The notes below the pieces were generated by a model. It worked only from the letters and a program-made list of their open reading frames with translations, was not told the origin of the DNA and did not search any database. A stretch of 64,000 bases of DNA from Variovorax sp. (GTDB lineage Bacteria > Pseudomonadota > Gammaproteobacteria > Burkholderiales > Burkholderiaceae_C): positions 1 through 64,000 of the forward strand of contig JANXTS010000071.1 in the NCBI GenBank assembly GCA_025352265.1, in the 5' to 3' direction. Positions 43,801 to 59,078 of this stretch are shown one piece after another. The translations under genes were made by a program, and so were the position numbers. Positions within the stretch are counted from its first letter, which is position 1; every line of letters starts with the position of its first letter.

Positions 43801-44961
43801 CTACTTGGGTGCGACCCAGGGCACGATCTTGCCTTCAGCAGACCATGCCACCACCAACGTGCCAGCCGTCTCCGCCTGGCCGTTGTTCATGGCCTCGCCG
43901 CCATAGACCTGATGGTCGATCTTCGTTACCTTCGACAGTGCCTGGCCCAGCGCCTCGCGGGTCGGTTTGCCGGACAGCGACTTCAACCCCTGAGCGATGA
44001 ACCACACCACCTGGTAGCCCTGAGCCGAATAGATGTCGGGCGCCACGTTGAACTTCTTCTGGTAGGCCGCGACGAAAGCCTTGGCTTCTGGCGTTTCCAC
44101 GATCGAGTCGGAAAAGCTGACCGGGAACGGCACGCCGACGACCGAATCACCCATCTTCTTGAAGATGGAAGCCGGCGACAGCACATCGTTGCCGACGATG
44201 GTCTTGGCGTAGCCGCGATCCTTCAGCGCGGTGATGGCACCGGCGGCAGCACCCTGCGTCGCATAGACCAGGATGATGTCGGCCTTCAGACCCATGGCTT
44301 GCGTAGCGGCCGCGGTGAAGTCGGTGTCCTTTGTCAGCACGCTGACCACGCCGGCGGTGGTCACGCCCTTGGCCTCGAGCGCTTCACGGGTCGCGTTCAT
44401 GCGGCCCTTGAAAGCGTCGTTGTCGGCCGCGAGGATGTAGGCGGCGGTCTTCGGCTTGACCGCATCGACGATCATGAGCGCGGTGGCTTTGTCTTTGGGG
44501 CCGGGCAGGATCGTCATGCTGTAGACGTAGGGCAGCTGCGGCAGGCCGGCCGCCGTCGCGCCGAAGATCACGAGCGGTGTCTTCGCCTCGGTCACGATCG
44601 GCTTCAGGGAGCCGGCAACGGGCGACAGAATGCAGCAACTGATCGCTAGCAGCGAAGGGTCGGCCACGAACTGATTGGTCGCCTGAATCGCGCGGGCGGC
44701 ATCGCTACCGCTCTCCTTCGGGTCCAGCACGATCGAGGCGCCGCCGAGGTACTTCTGCGTCTTGACCTCCTCCGCTGCCAGCTGCGCGCCGTTCCAGTAG
44801 GACTGGCCCGCCGACGCGATGGCGCCGGTGTTCTCTGTGACGAATCCGACCTTGTAGTCGCCCGGAGCGAGGCCCTGAGCGGACGCCGGTCCGACATGGA
44901 CGAACAAAGCAGCCAACGCTGCACCTAACAACGAAAAATTCTTCAAGTTCCAGCTCTTCAT
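43801..44961 (-). CDS. Second ABC importer, periplasmic binding protein
   Basis: The product is 386 residues from the ATG at 44961, preceded by GAGGAGACA. It has a signal peptide cut after GPASA and the Leu/Ile/Val-binding fold (GDYKVGFVTENTGAIASAGQ, LLAISCCILSPVAGSLKPI). It is placed directly after the hydro-lyase subunits and before the permeases, so its ligand is probably the dicarboxylic or branched acid processed by those enzymes, which is inference. Confidence 0.9.
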   Translation of the reverse strand: MKSWNLKNFSLLGAALAALFVHVGPASAQGLAPGDYKVGFVTENTGAIASAGQSYWNGAQLAAEEVKTQKYLGGASIVLDPKESGSDAARAIQATNQFVADPSLLAISCCILSPVAGSLKPIVTEAKTPLVIFGATAAGLPQLPYVYSMTILPGPKDKATALMIVDAVKPKTAAYILAADNDAFKGRMNATREALEAKGVTTAGVVSVLTKDTDFTAAATQAMGLKADIILVYATQGAAAGAITALKDRGYAKTIVGNDVLSPASIFKKMGDSVVGVPFPVSFSDSIVETPEAKAFVAAYQKKFNVAPDIYSAQGYQVVWFIAQGLKSLSGKPTREALGQALSKVTKIDHQVYGGEAMNNGQAETAGTLVVAWSAEGKIVPWVAPK

Positions 44962-44998
44962 CTCTTGTCTCCTCGGGGTGGTTGTCTTGATCGGCCGT

Positions 44999-45541
44999 TC
45001 AAGGTTGCGCATGTTGAACAGTCCGCGTCTTGTCGGCGAGAAATCTTTTCTTCAAATAGGTCTCGAGTCCGCCAGCTTCCAGCATGTCGAGGTCGGCGCG
45101 CGGCAGCGGCTCGAAAGCGATCTCGGTGTCCTGCGTCAGGTTGCGCACGCATTGGCCCGCCCAGTCGACTTCCAGCTCGTCCCAGCGTTCGGCGAACTGA
45201 AGGATGCCGGGGCACGGCACCTGCGGGAAGCCCATGCTGATCTCACCGCGCCAATAACCCGGTGAGAACGATTCGGCAATGACGCCCGCGATGCCCATGT
45301 GGCGCATGGCTTTCATCGGTGGATAGTGGGGATGGCCATAGCCGAAGTTGTGATTGCCCAGCAGCAGGTCGCCGGGCTTCACCAAGCTGGCGAAGGCGAG
45401 GTCGTATTCCTGCATCGCGGCCTTGCTCAGCTCTTCGATGTTGGTGGTCTTGATGTTCTTGACGCCGACGATCTGGTCGACGTCGAAGTCGATCTCGTCG
45501 AACTTGAAGGCCACGCGGCCGCGCAGGTTCATGAGTGCCAT
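44999..45541 (-). CDS. Aconitase-superfamily hydro-lyase, small (LeuD-like) subunit
   Basis: The 180-residue swivel-domain protein resembles LeuD (isopropylmalate isomerase small subunit): GRVAFKFDEIDFDVDQI at the start, then PGDLLLGNHNFGYGHPHYPP and GIAGVIAESFSPGYW. Canonical LeuD has GCGSSREHAP where this protein has GYGHPHYPP, so the substrate-binding Ser-Arg-Glu is lost. Its substrate must therefore differ from isopropylmalate. It is encoded 17 nt after the large subunit and just before an ABC importer. Dimethylmaleate hydratase DmdB is another LeuD relative and a possible model. Confidence 0.82.
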   Translation of the reverse strand: MALMNLRGRVAFKFDEIDFDVDQIVGVKNIKTTNIEELSKAAMQEYDLAFASLVKPGDLLLGNHNFGYGHPHYPPMKAMRHMGIAGVIAESFSPGYWRGEISMGFPQVPCPGILQFAERWDELEVDWAGQCVRNLTQDTEIAFEPLPRADLDMLEAGGLETYLKKRFLADKTRTVQHAQP

Positions 45542-45558
45542 GCTCTTCTCCTTGGCCG

Positions 45559-46827
45559 TTAACCGTTACCGGCGAGGTACGGACGCGGGTCGGCAATCTT
45601 GCCTTCGACCGCCGAGGCCGCGAGCACTGCGGCGTTGCACAGGTAGATCTCCGAGTCCGGACTGCCCATGCGACCGCGCACATTGAGCGTGCCGGTAGAC
45701 ACGGCGCGCTGGCCCGGTGCCATCGTCGCGATGCGGCCGAAGCAGTAGTCGCACGACGGCGACGAGACGAAGGCGCCCGCCTCGACGAACACCGACAGCA
45801 AGCCTTCGCGCGATGCGGCAGCCATGATTTCCTGGCTGGTCGGCACCACGTGCAAGGCAAAGCCCGGCGCGACCTGTCGGCCCGCCAGCACCTGCGCCGC
45901 AGCGCGCAGGTCTTCGATGCGGCCGGAAGCGCAAGACCCGAGGTAGCCGGTGTGGACCGGCAGGTCCAGGTATTCGCTCAAGTCGCGCGTGTTGGCCGGA
46001 CTCGGCGGGATCACGATGATGGGCTCGAGCGTCGACAGGTCGATCTCGTGTCGCGCGGCGTAGTGCGCGTCCTCGTCGCTGTAGACGGGTTCGAGCTTGA
46101 TGCGGGCGCGGGGCATGGCGTATTCGAGGCGCTTGGCATCGGGGTTCACGATGGCCGTCACGGCGCCGGTGAACATCGCCAGACCGGTGATGGTTTGCAA
46201 GGCATCGTTAGACATGTCGGCGACCGCTGGCCCACCGATCTCCAGCACCTGGAAGCGACATGACGCCGCGCCCAGCACGCGCACCAAGTGATGGAACACA
46301 TCGCGCGCCATCACGCCCGGCTGCAACTTGCCGACCAGATCGACACGCGTCGTATGCGGCACGCGGATGGAGACCCGCTCCAGTGCAAAAGCCTCGAGCA
46401 CGTTGCGCCTGAGACCCATGGCCAGCGTGCCGAAAGTGCCCAACTGGCTTACATGGCCGTCGAAGTGAACCACGAACGCGCCCGGCGTGGCGTAGCCCAC
46501 CTCGGACGACACCTGGTGCCCGATGCCCTTGCGTTCATACAGCTTCACGTCGTTGATGGTGGTCCATTCACGCGTGCCCTTGTGCAGCTCTTCTTCCGCC
46601 GGCGAGATGGCTGGGACCATGTGGTCGATGAAGATGCCGAAGCGTTCCGGCTCGGGCATCTTGGTGATGCCGAAGTTGTCTTTCAACTGCTTGAAGATCA
46701 CGTCGGTGTAGCCCGGGAAGTCGTAGGCGAGCACGAAGTCGGGCTTGGCCATGACCTCGTCGCCGGCCCTGACTGAGGCCAGGCTCGACACGCGCGCGAG
46801 GATCTTTTCTGTGATGGTGAAACCCAT
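45559..46827 (-). CDS. Aconitase-superfamily hydro-lyase, large (LeuC-like) subunit
   Basis: The product is 422 residues from the ATG at 46827. The three cysteines that would hold a [4Fe-4S] cluster are visible in GSCASGR and SPSCDYCFGR, and the substrate-site DH in FIDHMVP. The family's GDSHT segment is changed to FDGHVSQLGTFG, in line with the divergent small subunit. The two subunits should dehydrate and rehydrate a hydroxy-dicarboxylate. LeuC proper is about 470 residues, so this form is shorter. It sits with a PEP-mutase-family lyase under shared operators, which suggests the pair DmdA plus dimethylmalate lyase as an analogy. Confidence 0.84.
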   Translation of the reverse strand: MGFTITEKILARVSSLASVRAGDEVMAKPDFVLAYDFPGYTDVIFKQLKDNFGITKMPEPERFGIFIDHMVPAISPAEEELHKGTREWTTINDVKLYERKGIGHQVSSEVGYATPGAFVVHFDGHVSQLGTFGTLAMGLRRNVLEAFALERVSIRVPHTTRVDLVGKLQPGVMARDVFHHLVRVLGAASCRFQVLEIGGPAVADMSNDALQTITGLAMFTGAVTAIVNPDAKRLEYAMPRARIKLEPVYSDEDAHYAARHEIDLSTLEPIIVIPPSPANTRDLSEYLDLPVHTGYLGSCASGRIEDLRAAAQVLAGRQVAPGFALHVVPTSQEIMAAASREGLLSVFVEAGAFVSSPSCDYCFGRIATMAPGQRAVSTGTLNVRGRMGSPDSEIYLCNAAVLAASAVEGKIADPRPYLAGNG

Positions 46828-46877: not shown

Positions 46878-48455
46878 TCAGGCCGCGTTGCGCAACCCGA
46901 GCGAGCCGGGATTCATGACGCCCTTGGGGTCCAGCGCGCTCTTGATGGCGGTCAGCATGGCCCAGGTCGCTGGCTGCATCACTTGCTGCAGCGGATAGTC
47001 GCGGCCGATTTGCCAGTTGACGCCGCCCAGTTCCAGGTAGACCTGTTGCACGCCCTTGCGCAAGGCGATCACGGCTTCCCGCGCAGGCAGATTCGCGGGA
47101 CGGTCGAGCCATGGCCCGACCACGTCGTCGCCGAGACTCTGGCGGTGCAGCGGCGTGATTTCGTCTTGCCAGTAGAAGGCCGGCTCGAGAAAGAATTCAT
47201 TGCCCACCGTCATGGTGAGGTGCGACAGGATGATCCCGTGCGCCTTCATCATCGCGGCCTGACTCTCGAAGTACGCCGCACTCGCCTCCACCACGCGCGC
47301 GGTTTCGCTCATCGGGAATACCGCATGGATGGGTACCCAGCGCTGACCGTCCGCGCCGAGCATGCCGCGCACCGGATTGAAGGGACGCGAGCGCATCACC
47401 CGCGCTGCGGCATTCTCGATCTCGATGCCGTGCTTCCTGCCGATGGCGCGCAGCGCTGCCAGGTTGGCGGCCAGCGCATCGGCCGTCTTGCCCTCGACGA
47501 CGAGGTGCAGCGAACACGCATGGTCGGCCAGGTAGTTCGCGCCCGTCGTCGCCACGTTCACTGCATCCTTGATGCCCTGGAACAAACCTTTCGACGAGCG
47601 CGCCACACTGCTCAGGATCTTCACGCCGTCGGACAACTTGTTGACGCTCGCCGAGTTCAACGCCTTGGCGCGGTCGATGCCGAAACCTTCAGAGATCGCC
47701 TGTACGGCGCTCATCTCGGCTTGGGCCAATGCCATCGACTTCATGTCTTCGAAGCCGAAACCCAGGTAGTCCAGATGCTGGGGCGCCGCGTCGAGCTTGA
47801 GAGTTGCACCGAGCTTCAGACCGAAGGCGCCGGTGTCTCCGAGAAACAAGCCGGTCATGTCCGGCCCTGCATAGCGGGTGAAGGGCTTCGCACCGACGCG
47901 TCCACCGGAGCCGGTGGTCACCACCTCACCGCTGGCCAGCAACACGGTCACGCCCAGCACGCTGGCCGCGACAGTTCCGTGCAGTGTCGATCCGAAGAAG
48001 GCGCTGTTCTGCGCCAAGGCGCCGCCGACCGTGGCGTTGATGCCCGACAACGGACCCCAGTAGCCGGTGTTCATGCCGGTGGCCTTCAGCGCATCGTGCA
48101 CCTGCGCCCAGGTGCAGCCGGCCTCGACCGTGATGTACCGGTCGGGCACGTTGATCTCCAACACCTTGTTTAGCTCGCGCGTGTCGATGACGATCGTTTG
48201 CGTGCTCTCCGGCAGATAGCCCTTGGTATAGGACATGCCGCCACCGCGCGGCACGATAGCGATGTGGTGCGCCGCTGCAGTCTTGACCGCAGCCACGGCC
48301 TGCGCCTGCGTTTGCGGCAACACGACGCACATCGGCACGATGCCCGGCTGCCAGAAGATATCGTTGGCGTAGTACTCGCACGTCACGCTGTCCGACAGCA
48401 CTTGAGCGGAGCCGACGGCGTCGCGCAGTGCGGACAGGAAGGATTCGTTTTGCAT
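46878..48455 (-). CDS. FAD-linked oxidoreductase (GlcD / vanillyl-alcohol-oxidase superfamily)
   Basis: The predicted 525-residue protein has the PCMH-type FAD domain: VVLPQTQAQAVAAVKTAAAHHIAIVPRGGGMSY is distributed over residues ~43-80, with ITVEAGCTWAQVHDAL and WGPLSGINATVGGALAQNS following. The C-terminal cap ends ALDPKGVMNPGSLGL, the usual FAD-binding C-terminus. Members oxidise 2-hydroxy acids (glycolate, D-lactate, 2-hydroxyglutarate) or 4-alkylphenols. In this operon it probably oxidises a hydroxy acid that feeds or leaves the hydro-lyase. The electron acceptor is not evident. Confidence 0.85.
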   Translation of the reverse strand: MQNESFLSALRDAVGSAQVLSDSVTCEYYANDIFWQPGIVPMCVVLPQTQAQAVAAVKTAAAHHIAIVPRGGGMSYTKGYLPESTQTIVIDTRELNKVLEINVPDRYITVEAGCTWAQVHDALKATGMNTGYWGPLSGINATVGGALAQNSAFFGSTLHGTVAASVLGVTVLLASGEVVTTGSGGRVGAKPFTRYAGPDMTGLFLGDTGAFGLKLGATLKLDAAPQHLDYLGFGFEDMKSMALAQAEMSAVQAISEGFGIDRAKALNSASVNKLSDGVKILSSVARSSKGLFQGIKDAVNVATTGANYLADHACSLHLVVEGKTADALAANLAALRAIGRKHGIEIENAAARVMRSRPFNPVRGMLGADGQRWVPIHAVFPMSETARVVEASAAYFESQAAMMKAHGIILSHLTMTVGNEFFLEPAFYWQDEITPLHRQSLGDDVVGPWLDRPANLPAREAVIALRKGVQQVYLELGGVNWQIGRDYPLQQVMQPATWAMLTAIKSALDPKGVMNPGSLGLRNAA

Positions 48456-48500: not shown

Positions 48501-49406
48501 TCAGCCGGCCACCACGAGGTCGTCTGCAGGCCTGAAGTCGTAGCCGGCCCCACGGCGCTTCACGTACCCGCCGTGCGGCGCACCGAAGTGGGCGGGAAGC
48601 AGCAATGCTTTGCGGTCGTGGCAGTAGTCGAGGATGGAGCGGCGCGTAGCGCGAGCCTGGCTCGCCATCTCGCAGAAGCGGCTGTTCCAGTCGGGGCGAA
48701 ACACCTGCATCGGCTGGTGCAGCGAGTCGCCGGGAAAGATCGCCGCGTCGTTGCCGGACTCGAGCTTCAGCATGCCGTGACCGGCGGTATGGCCGATCGC
48801 GTCGTGGAAGAACAGGCCTTCGATGATCTTTGAGCCGTCGTCGATGAATTCGGCTTGCCCGGCTTCGATGACCGGCATCACGCTGTCTTCGATGACCGCG
48901 ATGTTCTCCGGCATCGTGACATGGCCGCCGGTCAGCGATTGCCAATGCTCGAACTCGCGATGCGAGAAGATGTACTTGGCGTTGGGGAAGGTCGGCACCC
49001 ATTTGCCGTCGACCAATCGCGTGTTCCAACCGACGTGATCGATGTGCAGGTGCGTGCAGATGACGAGCGTCACGTCCTCGGGACGCACGCCGGATTCGGT
49101 TAGCCGGTCGAGGTACGGCAGATGCAGTTGGTGGAAGCGCTCGAACAACGGAAGTGCACGCGTCTTGTCGTTGCCGCAGCCGGTGTCGATAAGGATGGTG
49201 TGCTTGTCGTCGCGGATCATCCACGAGTGCATGCTCGACATGACCTTCTGGCTGGGCTCGTCCCAAAACCTCGGCGCCGACAGCACCTTGTGCTCGTCGA
49301 AGATGTCGGGCGTGTAGTCAGGAAAGAGAAACTCAGGTTTGAATCCGGGCGTCAGCATTTCTTCAATGCGCGTCACGTGGTACGAGCCGATCTGGAATGT
49401 CTTCAT
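48501..49406 (-). CDS. Metallo-beta-lactamase-fold hydrolase (complete metal motif)
   Basis: The product is 301 residues from the ATG at 49406; an in-frame ATG at 49433 would add 9 residues. The metal motif is intact: THLHIDHVGW (HxHxDH), the following His in IGHTAGHG, the bridging Asp in FPGDSLHQP and a last His in LLPAHFGAPHGG. These enzymes hydrolyse lactones, esters or thioesters. It is the first gene of the ten-gene IclR-linked block, with a perfect TTGACA at 49511-49516 and two operator palindromes upstream. Confidence 0.86.
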   Translation of the reverse strand: MKTFQIGSYHVTRIEEMLTPGFKPEFLFPDYTPDIFDEHKVLSAPRFWDEPSQKVMSSMHSWMIRDDKHTILIDTGCGNDKTRALPLFERFHQLHLPYLDRLTESGVRPEDVTLVICTHLHIDHVGWNTRLVDGKWVPTFPNAKYIFSHREFEHWQSLTGGHVTMPENIAVIEDSVMPVIEAGQAEFIDDGSKIIEGLFFHDAIGHTAGHGMLKLESGNDAAIFPGDSLHQPMQVFRPDWNSRFCEMASQARATRRSILDYCHDRKALLLPAHFGAPHGGYVKRRGAGYDFRPADDLVVAG

Positions 49407-49484
49407 CTGTTTCGCCGTGATCTCTTTGTGCATCGATGTTAGGCAGGCCGCATCGGTCGCCTCACAGGGTAAACGTCCACGCCC

Positions 49485-49495
49485 CCACAATGTGG
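49485..49495. promoter_or_regulatory. IclR-type operator, copy 1 (CCACAATGTGG)
   Basis: A perfect 5+1+5 palindrome in the 367-bp region between the metallo-hydrolase and iclR genes. It lies 15 bp downstream of a perfect TTGACA (minus strand, 49511-49516), so it covers the expected -10 of the catabolic operon. Binding here should repress. Confidence 0.7.
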
Positions 49496-49564
49496 CGAAA
49501 GAATTTCAGGTGTCAAGCCCATGGCTGCGACCGAATGAGTCAAGTTGAAGGTTCGTTCACTTCT

Positions 49565-49575
49565 CCACAATGTAG
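49565..49575. promoter_or_regulatory. IclR-type operator, copy 2 (CCACAATGTAG)
   Basis: One mismatch from the palindrome, flanked by CT/AG so that the dyad extends to 15 bp with one mismatch. It is 80 bp from copy 1 and upstream of the same promoter. Confidence 0.6.
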
Positions 49576-49755
49576 AGCCTCAGGCGGCATTGAGGAATTC
49601 CTCGTACAAGGCGATCGTCGCCAGCACCGATTCCGGGGGGTCGACCGTGATACCAGAGCGTCGCCGGCGTAGCCGAAACCCGGGTACCGGCTGGCGCGAG
49701 TCGCCCGGTTTCTTCCCGGCCTTCGACCACCGTATGAGGGTTACCAGTTAGCTCG

Positions 49756-49766
49756 CCACAATGTGG
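49756..49766. promoter_or_regulatory. IclR-type operator, copy 3 (CCACAATGTGG)
   Basis: A perfect copy 8 bp before the iclR ATG at 49774, well placed for autoregulation. The stretch between copies 2 and 3 (49576-49755) holds no gene I can support. Confidence 0.7.
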
Positions 49767-49773
49767 ACTCCAT

Positions 49774-50643
49774 ATGATGTGTTCGATGATTGCAAGAACA
49801 CGAACATCAGCAGATCAAGCAAACATTCCTCCACAAGGTGGAGAGTCCAGATCAGGCACGCAGAGCATCGAACGGGTGGTCGACGTTCTTCGCGTGATCG
49901 CCTCGCGTGGACGTCGCGGCATGCGTGTCGGCGAAGTCGTCGCCACCTCCGGACTGGCGGAAGCAACCTGCTTTCGCATGCTTCGGAGACTGGAGCTGGA
50001 AGGAATGCTCGATCGCGACCCGCACAGCAAAAAGTACTTTCTCGGGCCGCTGCTGCATGAGTTGGGCTTGCTTGCGCGCCCCCGCTACAGGCTCGCTGAA
50101 CTGTGCGATGCAACATTGCAGCGCCTGGCCGAATTTACGCAAGACACGGTCTATCTGAGCGAGCGCAGCGGACTGGAGGCTGTGTGCGCGAACCGTGCAC
50201 TCGGCGACTTTCCGATCAAGTCGCTGTCCCTCGACATCGGCGTGAGAAGGCCGTTGGGTGTCGGTGCGGGCGGCCTGGCAATCCTCTGTGCATTGCCCGC
50301 TTCAGAAGCCCACGCATTGGTCGAGGCCAACTCCCATCGCTATGAAAAGTTCGCGTCCTTCACCGCCGATTTTCTCTACGGCGCCATCGCCGAAGGCCGA
50401 AAGCGCGGCTATTCTTTTCTAAAGGGCGCGGTCACGCCCGGCACGGCGTCGATCGGTGTGGCGTTTCCGCCCGGCAACCCGGTCGCGGCCATCAGCGTGG
50501 CAGCGATTGCCGGGCGCCTGCTGCCGGAACGCCGGCAGGAGATTGCGCGGGAGATGCACCGGGAAGTCGACAAACTCGTGCTTGCCATGGAGGCTGCAAA
50601 ATCAGCCGGCGACATGGCAGCGGCTGACGCTGCGCAGAAGTGA
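49774..50643 (+). CDS. IclR-family transcriptional regulator (second)
   Basis: The predicted 289-residue protein has an IclR start (SGTQSIERVVDVLRVIASRG) after a 27-residue leader and the recognition helix VATSGLAEATCFRMLRRLELEGM. The effector domain has the typical SLDIGVRRPLGVGAGGLAILCALP and KGAVTPGTASIGVAFPPGNP. It is divergent from the metallo-hydrolase operon and upstream of the convergent lyase gene. Copies of one palindrome lie at all three promoter regions, so this protein most likely controls the whole block. Confidence 0.88.
   Translation: MMCSMIARTRTSADQANIPPQGGESRSGTQSIERVVDVLRVIASRGRRGMRVGEVVATSGLAEATCFRMLRRLELEGMLDRDPHSKKYFLGPLLHELGLLARPRYRLAELCDATLQRLAEFTQDTVYLSERSGLEAVCANRALGDFPIKSLSLDIGVRRPLGVGAGGLAILCALPASEAHALVEANSHRYEKFASFTADFLYGAIAEGRKRGYSFLKGAVTPGTASIGVAFPPGNPVAAISVAAIAGRLLPERRQEIAREMHREVDKLVLAMEAAKSAGDMAAADAAQK
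49829..49843. promoter_or_regulatory. IclR-type operator, copy 4 (CTCCAC-AAG-GTGGAG)
   Basis: This perfect 6-bp dyad with a 3-nt centre lies inside the first codons of iclR (encoding ...PPQGGE), 75 bp from copy 3. An intragenic partner site would suit loop-mediated autorepression. Confidence 0.6.
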
Positions 50644-50686
50644 CAGCGCCACCTTGCGCTTGACCTCGGCTTTTTCAGAACCGCCT

Positions 50687-51562
50687 TCAGGTCATCGTTT
50701 CGTAGTGCGTCTGCCGTTCCTCAATAGCCTTCCAGCCGATGACATCCTTGAACGCAGACATCGTCGTCTGACCGCAAGGAAGATTGCCGATGTCTCCGCC
50801 ACGACGCCCCGCCATCACGCGCAGGTTTTCCTGCAACGCATGGACCGTGCTCATCAGCGTGATCAGCGGATAGGTCGCAAAGGCCGCGACGGACTCGACC
50901 TGTTCCCGCGTGAGATCGGCCATCCATAGGCCCTGCATCAGTTGCAGCGACAGGCGTCGGCCCGTCACCTCTTTCAGCTTGACCAGGTCTTCGTAGCGAC
51001 TGAAGGTGCGCGAGATCGGCTGGATCAGATCGGCGCCCGCCTCCGCATACTGAGCGCATCGGTCGATGGCCTCGGACGGATCGAGTGCGTCGGTGCGCGC
51101 AACGATCAGAAAGTCGGGATCGGTCCGCGCATCGACCGCCGCCTTGATCTTTGCAACGGCATCGCGCACCGGGATCACCGGCATGGTCGATGCCGCTGCG
51201 GGACAGCGCTTGGGGCTGAACTGGTCTTCGAGTTGGATGGCGACCGCCCCCGTCTTTTCGAACTCGCGCACTGTGCGCGCCATGTTGATCACGTTGCCGT
51301 AGCCGGTATCGGCATCGGCGAAGACGGGCTTGTTCACCAGATTGACGATGCGATCCACGACCGCCACGTTCTCCGTCAGCGTGTAGATCTCGACGTCGGG
51401 CTGGCCGAGCAAAGCTGCCGAGATGCCGAAGCCGGTGGTGAAAATGCCGTCGAAATCCGACTGGTCGACCAGCAGTGCAGACAGTGCGTCCTGCGCTCCC
51501 GCCATCCAGAGGGTTGGTCCTGACTGGATGCGCTGACGCACCGCCTTGCAATGGCTTTTCAT
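50687..51562 (-). CDS. Isocitrate lyase/PEP mutase-family C-C lyase
   Basis: The predicted 291-residue TIM-barrel protein has the metal-binding segment VFADADTGYGN and the active-site loop PKRCPAAAS. In methylisocitrate lyase and PEP mutase relatives this loop reads KRCGH, so the catalytic-loop Gly-His is replaced while the Cys remains. Later segments LIVARTDALDPSEAI and EAGADLIQPI fit the family. It should cleave a 2-hydroxy-dicarboxylate to pyruvate or glyoxylate plus a shorter acid; dimethylmalate lyase and oxaloacetate hydrolase are relatives. AAGGAG precedes the ATG. Two operator copies lie upstream, linking it to the hydro-lyase operon. Confidence 0.86.
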   Translation of the reverse strand: MKSHCKAVRQRIQSGPTLWMAGAQDALSALLVDQSDFDGIFTTGFGISAALLGQPDVEIYTLTENVAVVDRIVNLVNKPVFADADTGYGNVINMARTVREFEKTGAVAIQLEDQFSPKRCPAAASTMPVIPVRDAVAKIKAAVDARTDPDFLIVARTDALDPSEAIDRCAQYAEAGADLIQPISRTFSRYEDLVKLKEVTGRRLSLQLMQGLWMADLTREQVESVAAFATYPLITLMSTVHALQENLRVMAGRRGGDIGNLPCGQTTMSAFKDVIGWKAIEERQTHYETMT

Positions 51563-51608
51563 GGAGGCTCCTTGCGAATTGATTGGACTTGGGCACGCCA
51601 GTCAGTCC

Positions 51609-51619
51609 CCACAATGTGG
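51609..51619. promoter_or_regulatory. IclR-type operator, copy 5 (CCACAATGTGG)
   Basis: A perfect copy 47 bp upstream of the lyase ATG, in the 197-bp intergenic region between the lyase and the PRISE-type reductase. Confidence 0.7.
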
Positions 51620-51695
51620 TGACGACCAGAGGCCATTAAGGCATCAATTACATTGCCTGCAAGACAGCTGCTCTACAAGGTTTACCCTCAACTCT

Positions 51696-51706
51696 CCACA
51701 TCGTGG
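51696..51706. promoter_or_regulatory. IclR-type operator, copy 6 (CCACATCGTGG)
   Basis: One arm position differs from the consensus. It lies 87 bp from copy 5, completing the third pair of sites. It is also near the 3' end of the reductase gene. Confidence 0.55.
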
Positions 51707-51759
51707 ACAAGATCTACGGGCAGTTCCTTCGGAGAGCGACGGTGTCCATCAAGAACCGA

Positions 51760-52833
51760 TCAAGGAATTACGCGCTCAGCCTTCAGCTTGTCGAACAACT
51801 CAATGAAAGCATCCGGCGTGCTCTGAAAATCCAGAAAGCCGGCCTTGCGACTCTTGGTCATGTCGGCCAGCACCTCCATCGGCCGACCGAGGTCGGCGTC
51901 GGTGTGCCACCACGACACAAGGTTCTCGACGTTCGCTTCTTTTAATTTGTGGCGTTCGGCGATCTCTCGCCACTGGCTGGCACAGCCTTGCATCCGATCG
52001 GCCAGCGGGCGCACGGTGCCGTCGAATTCAGAGGCTTCGATGCCGAAGTATTCGGCCAGTCGGGGCCATAACCATTTCCAGCGAAACACATCGCCATCGA
52101 CGACGTTGAAGTCCTGATTGCGCGCAGCCGCAGTGTCCGAGGCCCACGCGAGATGACGGGCGAGCAGCCCCGCATCGGTCATGTCGGTGAGGCTTTCCCA
52201 CTGCGCTGCAGACCCCGGGAATACGAACGGTTGGCCCGTCTGCTTGCAGAGCGTGGCATAGACGGCGAGCGTCACGCCCATGTTCATCGCGTTGCCGATG
52301 GCGAACCCGATGATGGTGTGCGGGCGGTGCACGCTCCAGCCGAAGCCGTGGCGCTCGGCGGCCGCGAAGAGCCTGTCTTCTTGTTCGTAATAGAAGTTGT
52401 CTACCGGCTGTCGCCCTTGCTCTTCACGGAACGGCGTCATGGGCACGTTGCCGGTGCCGTAGGCTTCGAAGGGGCCGAGGTAATGCTTGAGCCCGGTGAC
52501 CAAGGCAGCATGGCCGCCGCGCAAGCCGGGGCCCACTGCGTCGAGCACATTGCTCACCATGGCCCCGTTGACGCGGATGTTCTCTTTCTCGTTCGCCTGC
52601 CTTGCCCAGGCAGCGAAGAATACTTTCGAGAATTCGATGCCACCGAGTGAACCCAGAACTTCAGCCAGGGCGGCGGGGTCGGTCAAGTCTGCCGTGAGCG
52701 GTTTCACGCCAGCCGCGACGGGCGTTCTGCCGCGAGAAAGCCCGTAGACCGACACACCCTCGGCGAGCAAATGCTCCGCGAGCGCACTTCCGATAACACC
52801 GCTGACCCCGACGACGAGCGCGTTTTTTTTCAT
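51760..52833 (-). CDS. PRISE-type NAD(P)-dependent enone reductase (atypical SDR)
   Basis: The product is 357 residues from the ATG at 52833, with AGGATGG six nt upstream. It has a Rossmann start (ALVVGVSGVIGSALAEHLL), the progesterone-5-beta-reductase/iridoid-synthase motif NFYYEQEDRLF, and SVHRPHTIIGFAIGN. PRISE enzymes reduce conjugated enones by 1,4-addition. Some bacterial members of the family are annotated only as aldose-reductase-like proteins. It is upstream of the lyase gene on the same strand with operators between, so it may belong to the same regulon, though not to the same transcript start. Confidence 0.82.
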   Translation of the reverse strand: MKKNALVVGVSGVIGSALAEHLLAEGVSVYGLSRGRTPVAAGVKPLTADLTDPAALAEVLGSLGGIEFSKVFFAAWARQANEKENIRVNGAMVSNVLDAVGPGLRGGHAALVTGLKHYLGPFEAYGTGNVPMTPFREEQGRQPVDNFYYEQEDRLFAAAERHGFGWSVHRPHTIIGFAIGNAMNMGVTLAVYATLCKQTGQPFVFPGSAAQWESLTDMTDAGLLARHLAWASDTAAARNQDFNVVDGDVFRWKWLWPRLAEYFGIEASEFDGTVRPLADRMQGCASQWREIAERHKLKEANVENLVSWWHTDADLGRPMEVLADMTKSRKAGFLDFQSTPDAFIELFDKLKAERVIP

Positions 52834-56747: not shown

Positions 56748-59078
56748 ATGACAAAAACCACAATGCCTGAAATGAACCGGGAGCCACTCACCGGCTCCTG
56801 CGCCGACAACGACTGCTGTGTGCCCTTGATGGCCGCTGCAGGGACGTCCGCCATCGCAGCCAAGACAACTGTTCCCGTGGGCGCAACGGTCTTCCGCATC
56901 CCCGCAATGGACTGTGCGGTTGAAGAAAGCGACATCCGCCGTGCGCTCGACAAGGTCACCGGCATCAAGAGCCTCAACTTCCAGTTGGGCGCGCGCACGG
57001 TGGCGATCAACGCACCGGCCGACGTGATTCCGCTGGCGGTCAAAGCTATTCAAAGCGCAGGTTACGAGCCGGTGCCGGTGAGCGCGTCTCGAAGCGGCGC
57101 AGGCCATGCTGCGACCCACGCAGCCGAGGACGGCCATCATGGCCACGACCATGCGGGGCATGGCCACGATCACGGCCACGCTCATGGCGAGCAATCGTCG
57201 AGCGTGATTCGCCTCGGCGCCGCGCTCGCACTGGCCGTCGGCGCCGAGGCGCTGCACTTCGTCGCCAGCGATGTCCCGGCAATGAAGTACGTCGGCCTCG
57301 GCATGGCCGCAATCGCGATCTGGTTGTCGGGCGTCGAGACATATTCCAAGGGCGTCAAGGCGCTGAGCCACGGCCGTTTGAACATCAATGCGCTGATGAG
57401 CGTGGCTGTGACCGGCGCTTTCGTCATCGGCCAGTGGCCGGAAGCCGCGATGGTCATGGCGCTCTACGCCATCGCCGAATTGATCGAAGCGCGTGCCGCC
57501 GACCGTGCCCGCAACGCGATCAAGGGCCTGGTCGCGCTTGCGCCGGAAGAAGCCGACGTGCAGCAGGCAGACCGCAGCTGGAAGACCGTGCCGTCGGCCG
57601 GTGTACCGCTCGACGCCATCGTGCGCATTCGTCCCGGTGAGCGCGTGCCGCTCGATGGCGTCGTCACCGAAGGACGCAGCGCGGTAAATCAGGCGCCGGT
57701 GACGGGCGAGAGCTTGCCCGTCGACCGCAGCGTCGGAGACGCGGTCTATGCCGGCACCATCAACGAGACCGGTGAACTCCAGTTTCGCGTGACCGGCACC
57801 GCCTCCAACACCACGCTGGCGCGCATCATCCATGCGGTCGAAGAAGCGCAGGGAACGCGCGCACCGACGCAGCGCTTCGTCGACCGTTTCGCGGCCATCT
57901 ACACGCCATCCGTCTTCGTGCTGGCATTGGCTGTTGCTGTGGTGATGCCGTGGCTGACGAACTCCACCTGGCTCGAAGCCATCTACAAGGCACTGGTGCT
58001 GCTGGTGGTCGCCTGCCCGTGCGCACTGGTGATCTCAACGCCGGTCACGGTCGTCAGCGCGCTGGCAGCGGGCGCGCGCAGAGGCATCCTGATCAAAGGC
58101 GGCACCTATCTGGAAGAGGCGCGAAACCTGAAGGCCATCGCGCTCGACAAGACCGGCACGATTACCGAGGGCAAGCCCAAACTGGTCGACTGGTTCGTTG
58201 TGCGCTCCAACGCCGACGAAGAGCAGGTCGGCCGCATCGCGATGAGCCTGGCGGAGCGTTCCGACCACCCGGTGTCAAAGGCCATCGCGCAAGGGCTCGG
58301 CTCGCCCACTCACGCAGTAGATGGCTTCACCGCCCTCCCCGGCCGCGGCACGCAAGGCACGATCGATGGCCGCAACCACGTGCTCGGCAACCACCGCCTC
58401 ATGCAGGAGCGTAACCACAGCAATGCCGACATCGCCGCCCGACTCGCGGCACACGAGCAGCAAGGCCGCACGGTCACGCTGCTGGCAGATGACAGCGGCG
58501 TCATCGCTCTGTTCGCGGTGGCTGACACCATCAAGGAATCATCGCGCCAGGCCATCGCCGAGCTCAAGGCACTCGGCGTGACGCCCATCATGCTGACCGG
58601 TGACAACGCGGCAACCGCGAAGACGATCGCCGCCGAAGCCGGCATCGACGAGTCGCAAGGCAACCTGTTGCCCGAAGACAAACTTGCAGAGATCCAGGCG
58701 TTGCAGAAGCGCTTTGGCGCCACCGCGATGACCGGTGACGGCATCAACGACGCCCCCGCGCTGGCGCAGTCCGATATCGGTTTCGCGATGGGCGCGATGG
58801 GCACCGACATCGCCATGGAAGCGTCAGACGTGGTGGTCATGAACGACGACCTGCGCCGCATTCCGGAGACGATTCGTCTCTCGCGCAAAACGCACACGGT
58901 GCTGGTGCAGAACATTTCGCTCGCGCTCGGCATCAAGGCCGTCTTCATGGCGCTCGCTCTGGTCGGCACCGCCACGATGTGGATGGCCGTATTCGCCGAC
59001 ATGGGCGCGACGCTGCTGGTCGTCGCCAATGGCTTGCGACTGATGCGTGCTAAGACGACGGGCGATCGCATCGCCTGA
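56748..59078 (+). CDS. cadA: Zn/Cd/Pb-exporting P1B-type ATPase
   Basis: The product is 776 residues from the ATG at 56748. An ATG at 56703 lies upstream of the predicted transcription start and is unlikely; ATGs at 56763 and 56772 are also possible. It has a Cys-rich N-terminus (CADNDCC), an HMA-like domain whose motif is MDCAVEE rather than CxxC, and a His-rich stretch (GHHGHDHAGHGHDHGHAHG). The metal channel motif is CPC (ACPCALVIS), the phosphorylation site DKTGTIT and the nucleotide-domain motif SDHPVSKA. It pumps Zn(II), Cd(II) or Pb(II) out of the cytoplasm. Confidence 0.9.
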   Translation: MTKTTMPEMNREPLTGSCADNDCCVPLMAAAGTSAIAAKTTVPVGATVFRIPAMDCAVEESDIRRALDKVTGIKSLNFQLGARTVAINAPADVIPLAVKAIQSAGYEPVPVSASRSGAGHAATHAAEDGHHGHDHAGHGHDHGHAHGEQSSSVIRLGAALALAVGAEALHFVASDVPAMKYVGLGMAAIAIWLSGVETYSKGVKALSHGRLNINALMSVAVTGAFVIGQWPEAAMVMALYAIAELIEARAADRARNAIKGLVALAPEEADVQQADRSWKTVPSAGVPLDAIVRIRPGERVPLDGVVTEGRSAVNQAPVTGESLPVDRSVGDAVYAGTINETGELQFRVTGTASNTTLARIIHAVEEAQGTRAPTQRFVDRFAAIYTPSVFVLALAVAVVMPWLTNSTWLEAIYKALVLLVVACPCALVISTPVTVVSALAAGARRGILIKGGTYLEEARNLKAIALDKTGTITEGKPKLVDWFVVRSNADEEQVGRIAMSLAERSDHPVSKAIAQGLGSPTHAVDGFTALPGRGTQGTIDGRNHVLGNHRLMQERNHSNADIAARLAAHEQQGRTVTLLADDSGVIALFAVADTIKESSRQAIAELKALGVTPIMLTGDNAATAKTIAAEAGIDESQGNLLPEDKLAEIQALQKRFGATAMTGDGINDAPALAQSDIGFAMGAMGTDIAMEASDVVVMNDDLRRIPETIRLSRKTHTVLVQNISLALGIKAVFMALALVGTATMWMAVFADMGATLLVVANGLRLMRAKTTGDRIA

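What the first reader, a model, noticed from the sequence alone, without database searches (positions are those of the whole stretch)
49485..51706. Six copies of one palindrome arranged as three operator pairs around an IclR gene
CCACAATGTGG or a close variant occurs at 49485, 49565, 49756, 49829-49843, 51609 and 51696. The copies fall into three pairs spaced 80, 75 and 87 bp apart. One pair lies in each of the three regulatory regions: the metallo-hydrolase/hydro-lyase operon, iclR itself, and the PEP-mutase-family lyase. One copy covers the expected -10 of the operon promoter and one lies inside the iclR coding sequence. This defines a local regulon and suggests loop formation by an IclR tetramer with an operator sequence I do not recognise from characterised IclR proteins.
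Basis: seen in the sequence. Interest (0 to 1): 0.8.

Follow-up and report, generated by a model that had tools for sequence, protein, structure and literature searches.

The report
Paired operators of an IclR autoregulator
A bacterial regulator appears to control its own gene and a neighbouring organic-acid pathway through pairs of near-identical DNA landing sites kept about 75 or 86 letters apart across dozens of species, which suggests that one protein complex grips both sites and pinches the promoter between them into a small loop.

Summary
They look like cognate operators: 43 of 44 non-redundant ortholog loci have two or more. The usual layout is divergent iclR and leuCD-like hydro-lyase genes with sites O1-86-O2, in 19 loci also O3 inside the iclR coding sequence. 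O1-O2 spacing is 84-90 bp in 40 of 40 measured (85-87 in 35), although interiors from the two groups are only 32% identical. O2-O3 is 75-77 in 18 of 19 and 64 (one turn less) in the other. Without O3, the O2-to-HTH distance wanders by 9-17 bp; with it, it is nearly fixed. So the spacing is probably selected and the pairs act as units. Loop formation by a tetramer is the best mechanism but is not shown. Cautions: the PEP-mutase pair descends from the ancestral O1-O2 region, so the window's pairs are not independent; the 80-bp pair is out of helical phase; no consensus promoter was found. The operator shares its inner geometry with IclR "group 2" motifs.

The parts
49485..49495 (.). Operator, MBL-proximal copy, CCACAATGTGG
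   Evidence: kept in L113
49565..49575 (.). Operator, MBL-distal copy, CCACAATGTAG, 80 bp from the previous one
   Evidence: kept in L113 at 80 bp
49756..49766 (.). Operator O2 of iclR, CCACAATGTGG
   Evidence: centre at -94 from codon 28, as in orthologs
49831..49841 (.). Operator O3 inside the iclR coding sequence, CCACAAGGTGG, 75 bp from O2
   Evidence: DNA-level conservation and rare codons
51609..51619 (.). Operator O1-type, PEP-mutase-proximal, CCACAATGTGG
51696..51706 (.). Operator O2-type, PEP-mutase-distal, CCACATCGTGG, 87 bp from the previous one
49786..50643 (+). iclR-family regulator gene; start codon at 49786 preferred over 49774 because an ATG at this place (-69) occurs in 12 of 20 loci compared
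   Evidence: Pfam HTH_IclR + IclR_C; N-termini
48501..49433 (-). Metallo-beta-lactamase-fold hydrolase (MBL), first gene of the divergent operon
   Evidence: Lactamase_B
46878..48455 (-). FAD-linked oxidase (GlcD-like)
45559..46797 (-). Aconitase-family hydro-lyase large subunit (LeuC/DmdA-like)
44999..45541 (-). Hydro-lyase small subunit (LeuD/DmdB-like)
43801..44967 (-). ABC transporter substrate-binding protein; permease and ATPase frames follow to about 40475
50687..51562 (-). PEP-mutase/isocitrate-lyase-family lyase; in relatives it follows leuC and leuD on the same strand
49467..49474 (.). GGGTAAAC element 18 bp before the operator at 49485
   Evidence: read; counterpart of the element
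49738..49745 (.). GGGTTACC element 18 bp before O2
   Evidence: read
51678..51686 (.). AGGTTTACC element 18 bp before the operator at 51696
   Evidence: read

Best explanation
A local autoregulator of the IclR family binds a palindrome close to TCCACANTGTGGA. The sites are used in pairs about 7-8 helical turns apart, each pair enclosing or overlapping a promoter. In the ancestral layout O1 and O2 (86 bp) flank the promoter region of the leuC-leuD-(transporter)-lyase operon and, in one group, O2 and O3 (75/76 bp) flank the iclR start region, O2 being shared. One regulator tetramer most likely bridges the two members of a pair, holding the promoter in a small loop until a pathway metabolite releases it. 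In the window organism the operon was rearranged: the lyase gene carries a displaced O1-O2 region, iclR keeps O2-O3, and the metallo-hydrolase-led operon has its own pair (80 bp). Shown by computation: sites, linkage to iclR, conserved spacing, DNA-level constraint on O3. Inferred: binding by this IclR, repression, tetramer bridging, inducer release.
For: 44 non-redundant ortholog loci: O1-O2 spacing in 40: 86 (20), 85 (9), 87 (6), 90 (2), 84, 88, 89 (1 each). O2-O3 in 19: 75 (10), 76 (7), 77 (1), 64 (1, L047, one turn shorter). Gapless identity of the O1-O2 interior between clade A (loci with O3, plus L116) and clade B (O1-O2 only) is 32% in 126 equal-length pairs, so length outlived sequence. 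Comparison of loci with and without O3, codon 28 re-anchored on TQSIE: the O2-to-codon-28 distance differs by 1.5 bp (81 pairs at 70-80% IclR identity) and 0.7 bp (35 pairs at 80-90%) with O3; by 14.1 bp (127 pairs) and 10.9 bp (27 pairs) without. O3 columns carry 1.75 bits against 0.85 in flanking columns, through codons CCA, CAA, GGT used at 2.1, 10.6 and 6.8% in these genes; CCACAAGGT in 16 of 20. L046 changes PPQGG to PPHSG but keeps a palindrome (CCACATAGTGG). Six-site array kept in L113. Loose pairs at 71-101 bp in 16 genomes: 10 of 19 in the iclR cluster, against 0 of 18 at 102-132 bp. Two other IclR paralogs have their own pairs: one 39% identical at 76 bp (L057/L037) and one 37% identical with another palindrome, picked by eye, at 84, 84, 87, 116 and 120 bp in five relatives.
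Against: No binding or expression data. O1-O2 spacing covers 84-90 bp, more than half a turn, and the MBL pair (80) is about half a turn out of phase with 75/86; the distinct spacings give a mean resultant of only 0.45 at 10.5 bp. Promoter-like elements lie at near-fixed places inside O1-O2, so promoter geometry might pin the spacing. The O3 comparison is not clean: in 20 of 24 loci without O3 an in-frame GTG lies inside O2, so there the varying distance is the length of a coding tail, and species pairs are not independent. The PEP-mutase pair is homologous to the ancestral region and the MBL pair weakly similar to it. In 75 other paralogs pairs exceed shuffles at nearly every spacing, not only near 75/86. 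A replication set of 56 further paralog regions gave only 1-3 pairs and could not test phase. L116 has no recognisable O3. L114 has a single site besides O3 between MBL and iclR.
Confidence: 0.6

Rival explanations
1. Same regulator and sites, but each site is bound independently: O2 blocks the regulator promoter, O1 blocks the operon's initiation or elongation, O3 acts as a roadblock in the coding sequence. Spacing is inherited or pinned by promoter elements and not by protein bridging.
For: A -10-like hexamer (TGTAAT, TATAGT, TTTAAT) lies 29-32 bp from O1 in 35 of 40 loci and a GGGT-ACCC-like palindrome 18-20.5 bp from O2 in 38 of 40, by lenient patterns. In 20 of 24 loci without O3 an in-frame GTG start lies inside O2. 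The MBL pair is out of phase and O1-O2 spacing is not a sharp helical comb.
Against: It does not by itself explain why the O2-to-HTH distance is locked where O3 exists, why the one deviant O2-O3 spacing (64) differs from 75 by one turn, or why other IclR paralogs show pairs at 76 and 84-87 bp.
Confidence: 0.32
2. The palindromes belong to another DNA-binding protein encoded elsewhere, and iclR is merely one of its targets.
For: No binding data exist; the GGGT-ACCC palindrome beside O2 shows that a second factor is possible.
Against: The sites stay with iclR when neighbours change (MBL-led in L113 and L114, leuC-led in the 31 other mapped loci). Pairs with the CCACAWTGTGG core at 66-96 bp occur in 2 of 299 family genomes, both at orthologs; the window's own pairs miss that strict core. 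The motif geometry fits IclR group 2.
Confidence: 0.05
3. Chance: an 11-bp palindrome with mismatches in a GC-rich window.
For: At up to 2 mismatches the window as a whole shows no clear excess.
Against: Clustering, and conservation of site and position across 44 loci; background above score 13 is 2 of 275,312 positions.
Confidence: 0.01

Closest known systems
IclR-family operators surveyed by Suvorova and Gelfand 2021 (PMC8222616; abstract, passages and section 14 read)
   Same: Palindrome with inner ACA-N-TGT, as in the group 2 consensus TGRAACAN1-2TGTTYCA; several sites per regulatory region; tetramer binding proposed there.
   Different: The letters outside ACA are CC, mostly TCC or GCC, and not TGRA. 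The survey's preferred tandem distance is 18-22 nt (about 3 and 4 turns also over-represented); here 75-90. It calls sites centred at +40 to +50 very rare; O3 sits at about +50 from the window's preferred start codon.
gal-type repression loop (GalR operators flanking promoters; recalled, not tested)
   Same: Two operators flank the promoter region at short distance, with an extra palindrome between the upstream operator and the -10.
   Different: Different repressor family, shorter distance, two abutting pairs sharing a middle operator.
E. coli IclR at aceBAK, two IclR boxes (recalled; no primary paper read)
   Same: IclR-family tetramer repressing an operon with more than one site.
   Different: Operator sequence and gene set; spacing was not compared here.
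BhcR of Paracoccus (NF045644; PMC11323563, passages read)
   Same: Best NCBIfam model for the regulator (E 1.3e-20); regulator gene divergent from its target operon.
   Different: 73.8 bits against a cut-off of 350; the paper reports one potential palindromic site upstream of the -35 of bhcA.
Dimethylmaleate hydratase (DmdAB) plus 2,3-dimethylmalate lyase module (recalled pathway)
   Same: LeuD/DmdB-like small subunit, aconitase-type large subunit and an isocitrate-lyase-type lyase together.
   Different: All NCBIfam models for these three proteins are below their cut-offs; the best PDB match of the lyase is methylisocitrate lyase, with 3fa3 (2,3-dimethylmalate lyase) lower. Substrate unknown.

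Membership tests
IclR family of regulators | N-terminal HTH_IclR and C-terminal IclR_C effector domain | tested here: met
   Both above Pfam gathering scores (37.5 vs 22; 44.5 vs 24)
IclR family of regulators | Tetramer (dimer of dimers) on DNA | not testable with these tools
   No oligomer test run; sequence matches in PDB include TtgV 2xrn at E 2.3e-5
IclR group 2 operator (TGRAACAN1-2TGTTYCA) | Inner ACA-N-TGT palindrome geometry | tested here: met
   CCACANTGTGG in window and, with variants, in orthologs
IclR group 2 operator (TGRAACAN1-2TGTTYCA) | Outer TGRA half-site | tested here: not met
   Mostly TCC or GCC outside the inner ACA
IclR tandem operators | Centres 18-22 nt apart | tested here: not met
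   64-90 bp between the palindromes; a different palindrome does lie 18-20.5 bp from O2
Loop-forming operator pair (gal/lac type) | Spacing conserved and helically phased | tested here: inconclusive
   Length conserved; phase support partial
Loop-forming operator pair (gal/lac type) | Cooperative binding, phase-dependent repression | not testable with these tools
   Needs footprinting and reporter constructs
BhcR equivalog (NF045644) | Score above the curated cut-off of 350 bits | tested here: not met
   73.8 bits

The most novel reading that the evidence does not exclude
IclR-family regulators are loop-formers as a rule: pairs of palindromes several helical turns apart, in a common phase (spacing about 2 modulo 10.5), enclose the promoters of the regulator and its target, with a middle operator shared by two abutting mini-loops. 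The leuCD-lyase autoregulator described here is the clearest case.
Probability: 0.28. Interest if true: 0.68.

Novelty: new variant of a known kind. Interest (0 to 1): 0.52.

Why it matters
The one broad survey read here describes IclR-family tetramers on closely spaced tandem sites. A conserved 75/86-bp paired layout, with a coding-sequence operator and a spacing that is fixed where that operator exists, gives an evolutionary argument for long-range bridging in this family, and a compact test bed (two abutting pairs, natural variants of 64 to 90 bp) for short-loop repression. It also supplies an operator consensus for annotating this regulon in Variovorax and relatives.

Tried and rejected
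Pairs with the exact core in 299 family genomes: 2 genomes only, both orthologs; too strict for spacing statistics. A palindrome-pair finder without a motif: on 15 paralogs nothing but one weak pair, L032 at 73 bp, 1 of 50 shuffles; on L134-L138 nothing at all, so the pairs reported for those five loci were picked by eye from the printed sequence and the matrix was built from the same ten sites; the L134 pair is the weakest (12.1 and 14.4). Orthologs of the L057 paralog: 1 of 349 genomes at E 1e-60, itself only, so its 76-bp spacing could not be footprinted. Consensus promoters: none in 49300-51850. The fourth exact genome copy (L001) has no partner within its 3-kb locus. Helical phase in other paralogs: set A (75 regions) favours a period of 10.1-10.6 among 6-16 at all four score cut-offs, with Rayleigh p at 10.5 of 0.04, 0.07, 0.009 and 0.009. 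Period 10.5 was chosen from DNA geometry, but the cut-offs were not fixed beforehand. The pre-stated replication (56 regions, one of them, L227, cut short by its contig end) had only 3, 2, 1 and 1 pairs at the four cut-offs, so it neither confirms nor refutes.

Corrections made on checking: the comparison had codon 28 misplaced by 3-12 bp in 11 loci without O3; it was redone with the TQSIE anchor, which is what the report cites, and the conclusion stands. The GTG-in-O2 statement was counted only afterwards (20 of 24). Because this weakens the O3 comparison I lowered the main odds slightly (0.62 to 0.60) and the novel case (0.30 to 0.28) and raised the chief rival (0.30 to 0.32).

L056 has no recognised O2 (threshold 6), and window, L113 and L114 have no O1 at the iclR side, hence 40 of 44 for O1-O2. 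L116 (no scored O3) was left out of both groups and counted with clade A; L047 was left out of the column statistics. The weight matrix was built from sites in these loci, so scores are circular; spacings were not used to build it. O1 and O2 were assigned in search ranges; the list shows every hit above 6 from -320 to +10. The enrichment is against dinucleotide shuffles of regions that mix coding and non-coding DNA.
Full report
Observation. In the whole genome exact CCACAATGTGG occurs four times, three of them here. At two mismatches the window shows no clear excess (22 against 16.6 expected), so the case rests on clustering and on conservation. A weight matrix gave 18.4-20.0 for all six sites, and 2 of 275,312 background positions above 13, one of them at 58972 in this window.

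Who carries the sites. The regulator has HTH_IclR and IclR_C domains. Orthologs came from genome searches; 33 of the non-window loci were read in stretches of about 11-20 kb and ten with the 1.5-kb flanks of the search (L060-L068, L091). After removing duplicates 44 loci remain, the window included; 43 of 44 have two or more sites and L056 has one. The window's genus is probably Variovorax: contigs with the lengths of named Variovorax records fall in its genus group. In 31 of the 33 mapped loci iclR is divergent from a leuC-like gene followed by leuD and, sometimes after a Liv-type transporter, the PEP-mutase-type lyase. The other two (L113, L114) have the window's MBL-led arrangement.

Ancestral layout. 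Centres measured from the codon for residue 28 (before TQSIE) lie near -180 (O1), -94 (O2) and -19 (O3, inside the coding sequence) in one group. A second group has O1 and O2 only. O1-O2 is 84-90 bp in 40 of 40 measured loci, 85-87 in 35. O2-O3 is 75-77 in 18 of 19 and 64 in L047.

Why the spacing looks selected. First, interiors of equal length from the two groups are 32% identical without gaps (126 pairs), so the sequence has been replaced while the length stayed. Second, the O3 comparison: at equal regulator divergence the distance from O2 to the HTH codon differs by 1.5 and 0.7 bp where O3 exists, but by 14.1 and 10.9 bp where it does not (70-80% and 80-90% identity bins). In the 60-70% bin it is 4.7 bp with O3 (0.3 bp without L047) against 17.4 bp. 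Two limits: species pairs are not independent, and in 20 of 24 loci without O3 an in-frame GTG lies inside O2, so there the distance is a coding tail. Third, O3 is conserved as DNA: it uses rare codons, stands out against its flanks, and keeps a palindrome in L046 where the peptide changes.

What happened in the window. L113 (94% identical regulator) has the same six sites at 80, 75 and 88 bp; L114 (80%) has the MBL gene directly divergent from iclR with one O2 and an O3 77 bp away. The interior of the PEP-mutase pair aligns with the ancestral leuC-iclR region better than all 500 shuffles for L043 and L117, marginally for L116 (6 of 500 reach it), not for L046 (198 of 500). The MBL pair resembles the PEP-mutase pair weakly (2 of 500; 3 of 500 in L113) and the ancestral region no better than chance (75-242 of 500). 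The test is of limited power, since true orthologs of the two groups also fail it (55 and 88 of 500; all). So the local regulon grew by displacement, and perhaps duplication, of one operator array, and the three pairs are not three independent inventions.

Promoters. No consensus sigma-70 promoter was found in the region. In orthologs a -10-like hexamer on the leuC strand lies 29-32 bp from O1 (35 of 40 loci), and a second palindrome such as GGGTTAACCC or GGGTGCAACCC lies 18-20.5 bp from O2 (38 of 40; patterns were loosened in steps). If that -10 is used, O1 falls near +24, the second palindrome near -42 and O2 near -62 (inference).

Regulon size. In 16 genomes, loosely defined pairs (CCACNNNGTGG) 71-101 bp apart were found 19 times, 10 of them in the iclR cluster of 7 genomes; at 102-132 bp 18 times, none there. 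In each of the nine others at least one member departs from CCACANTGTGG. Nine of the 16 genomes, all holding an ortholog or paralog, gave no match at their own iclR because their sites miss this pattern. The regulon looks local, but this search would not see degenerate sites elsewhere.

Other IclR lineages. A 39%-identical paralog has a pair at 76 bp, one site just after its start codon. A 37%-identical paralog of the same genome and four relatives have palindromes of the type GGTTCA-N5-TGAACC at 116, 120, 87, 84 and 84 bp, picked by eye. In 75 paralog upstream regions operator-like sites are enriched (79 against 23 in shuffles at score 8) and pairs exceed shuffles in nearly every spacing bin. 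Their spacings favour a 10.1-10.6 bp period with about the same phase as 75/86, p 0.009-0.07 depending on cut-off, exploratory. The planned replication had too few pairs.

Mechanism. The best-supported reading is an autoregulator whose tetramer bridges two operators, holding a promoter in a loop of 7-8 turns, with O2 shared between two abutting loops. Shown: sites, linkage, length constraint, DNA-level constraint on O3. Inferred: binding, repression, bridging, inducer. The chief rival, independent occupancy with promoter-pinned spacing, cannot be excluded for O1-O2 but fits the O2-O3 data less well. The 80-bp MBL pair is out of phase and remains unexplained.

Comparison. The survey of IclR motifs (PMC8222616: abstract, passages and section 14 read) gives tandem centres at 18-22 nt, with about 3 and 4 turns also over-represented; its distance figure and supplements were not seen. 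The layout here is a variant of that known kind. A search of the held paper library for the core letters gave nine papers, whose titles concern unrelated subjects (listing only). Searches on IclR with looping, tetramers or paired operators listed no title or abstract start describing such pairs (listings only).

Noticed in passing
49467-49474, 49738-49745, 51678-51686; orthologs: A second palindrome (GGGTTAACCC or GGGTGCAACCC type) sits 18-20.5 bp from O2 in 38 of 40 loci; it may be an activator site or a second regulator dimer.
   Followed up: partly
L048, L050-L055, L066, L067, L121-L131: In 20 of 24 loci without O3 an in-frame GTG, a possible start codon of iclR, lies inside operator O2, suggesting a very short or absent leader.
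   Followed up: partly
L118, L119, L044, L064, L116 next to O1: Read by eye: an inverted repeat with changing arms (for example GGCGACA...TGTCGCC) lies just inside O1, at the expected 5' end of the leuC transcript; perhaps an mRNA 5' hairpin.
   Followed up: no
L134-L138, about 30-175 bp before the match: Another IclR paralog, divergent from a gene that reads by eye as thiolase-like in L134, has its own paired palindromes at 116, 120, 87, 84 and 84 bp.
   Followed up: partly
window 44999-46797 and 50687-51562: Aconitase-type hydro-lyase plus isocitrate-lyase-type lyase form a conserved module resembling dimethylmaleate hydratase and dimethylmalate lyase; substrate unknown.
   Followed up: partly
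L094/L114 and L026/L055: The ortholog matches in G789 and G078 are each reported with one in-frame TGA.
   Followed up: no
window 58972-58982: A lone near-match of the palindrome lies inside a frame that reads by eye as a P-type ATPase; taken as chance.
   Followed up: yes
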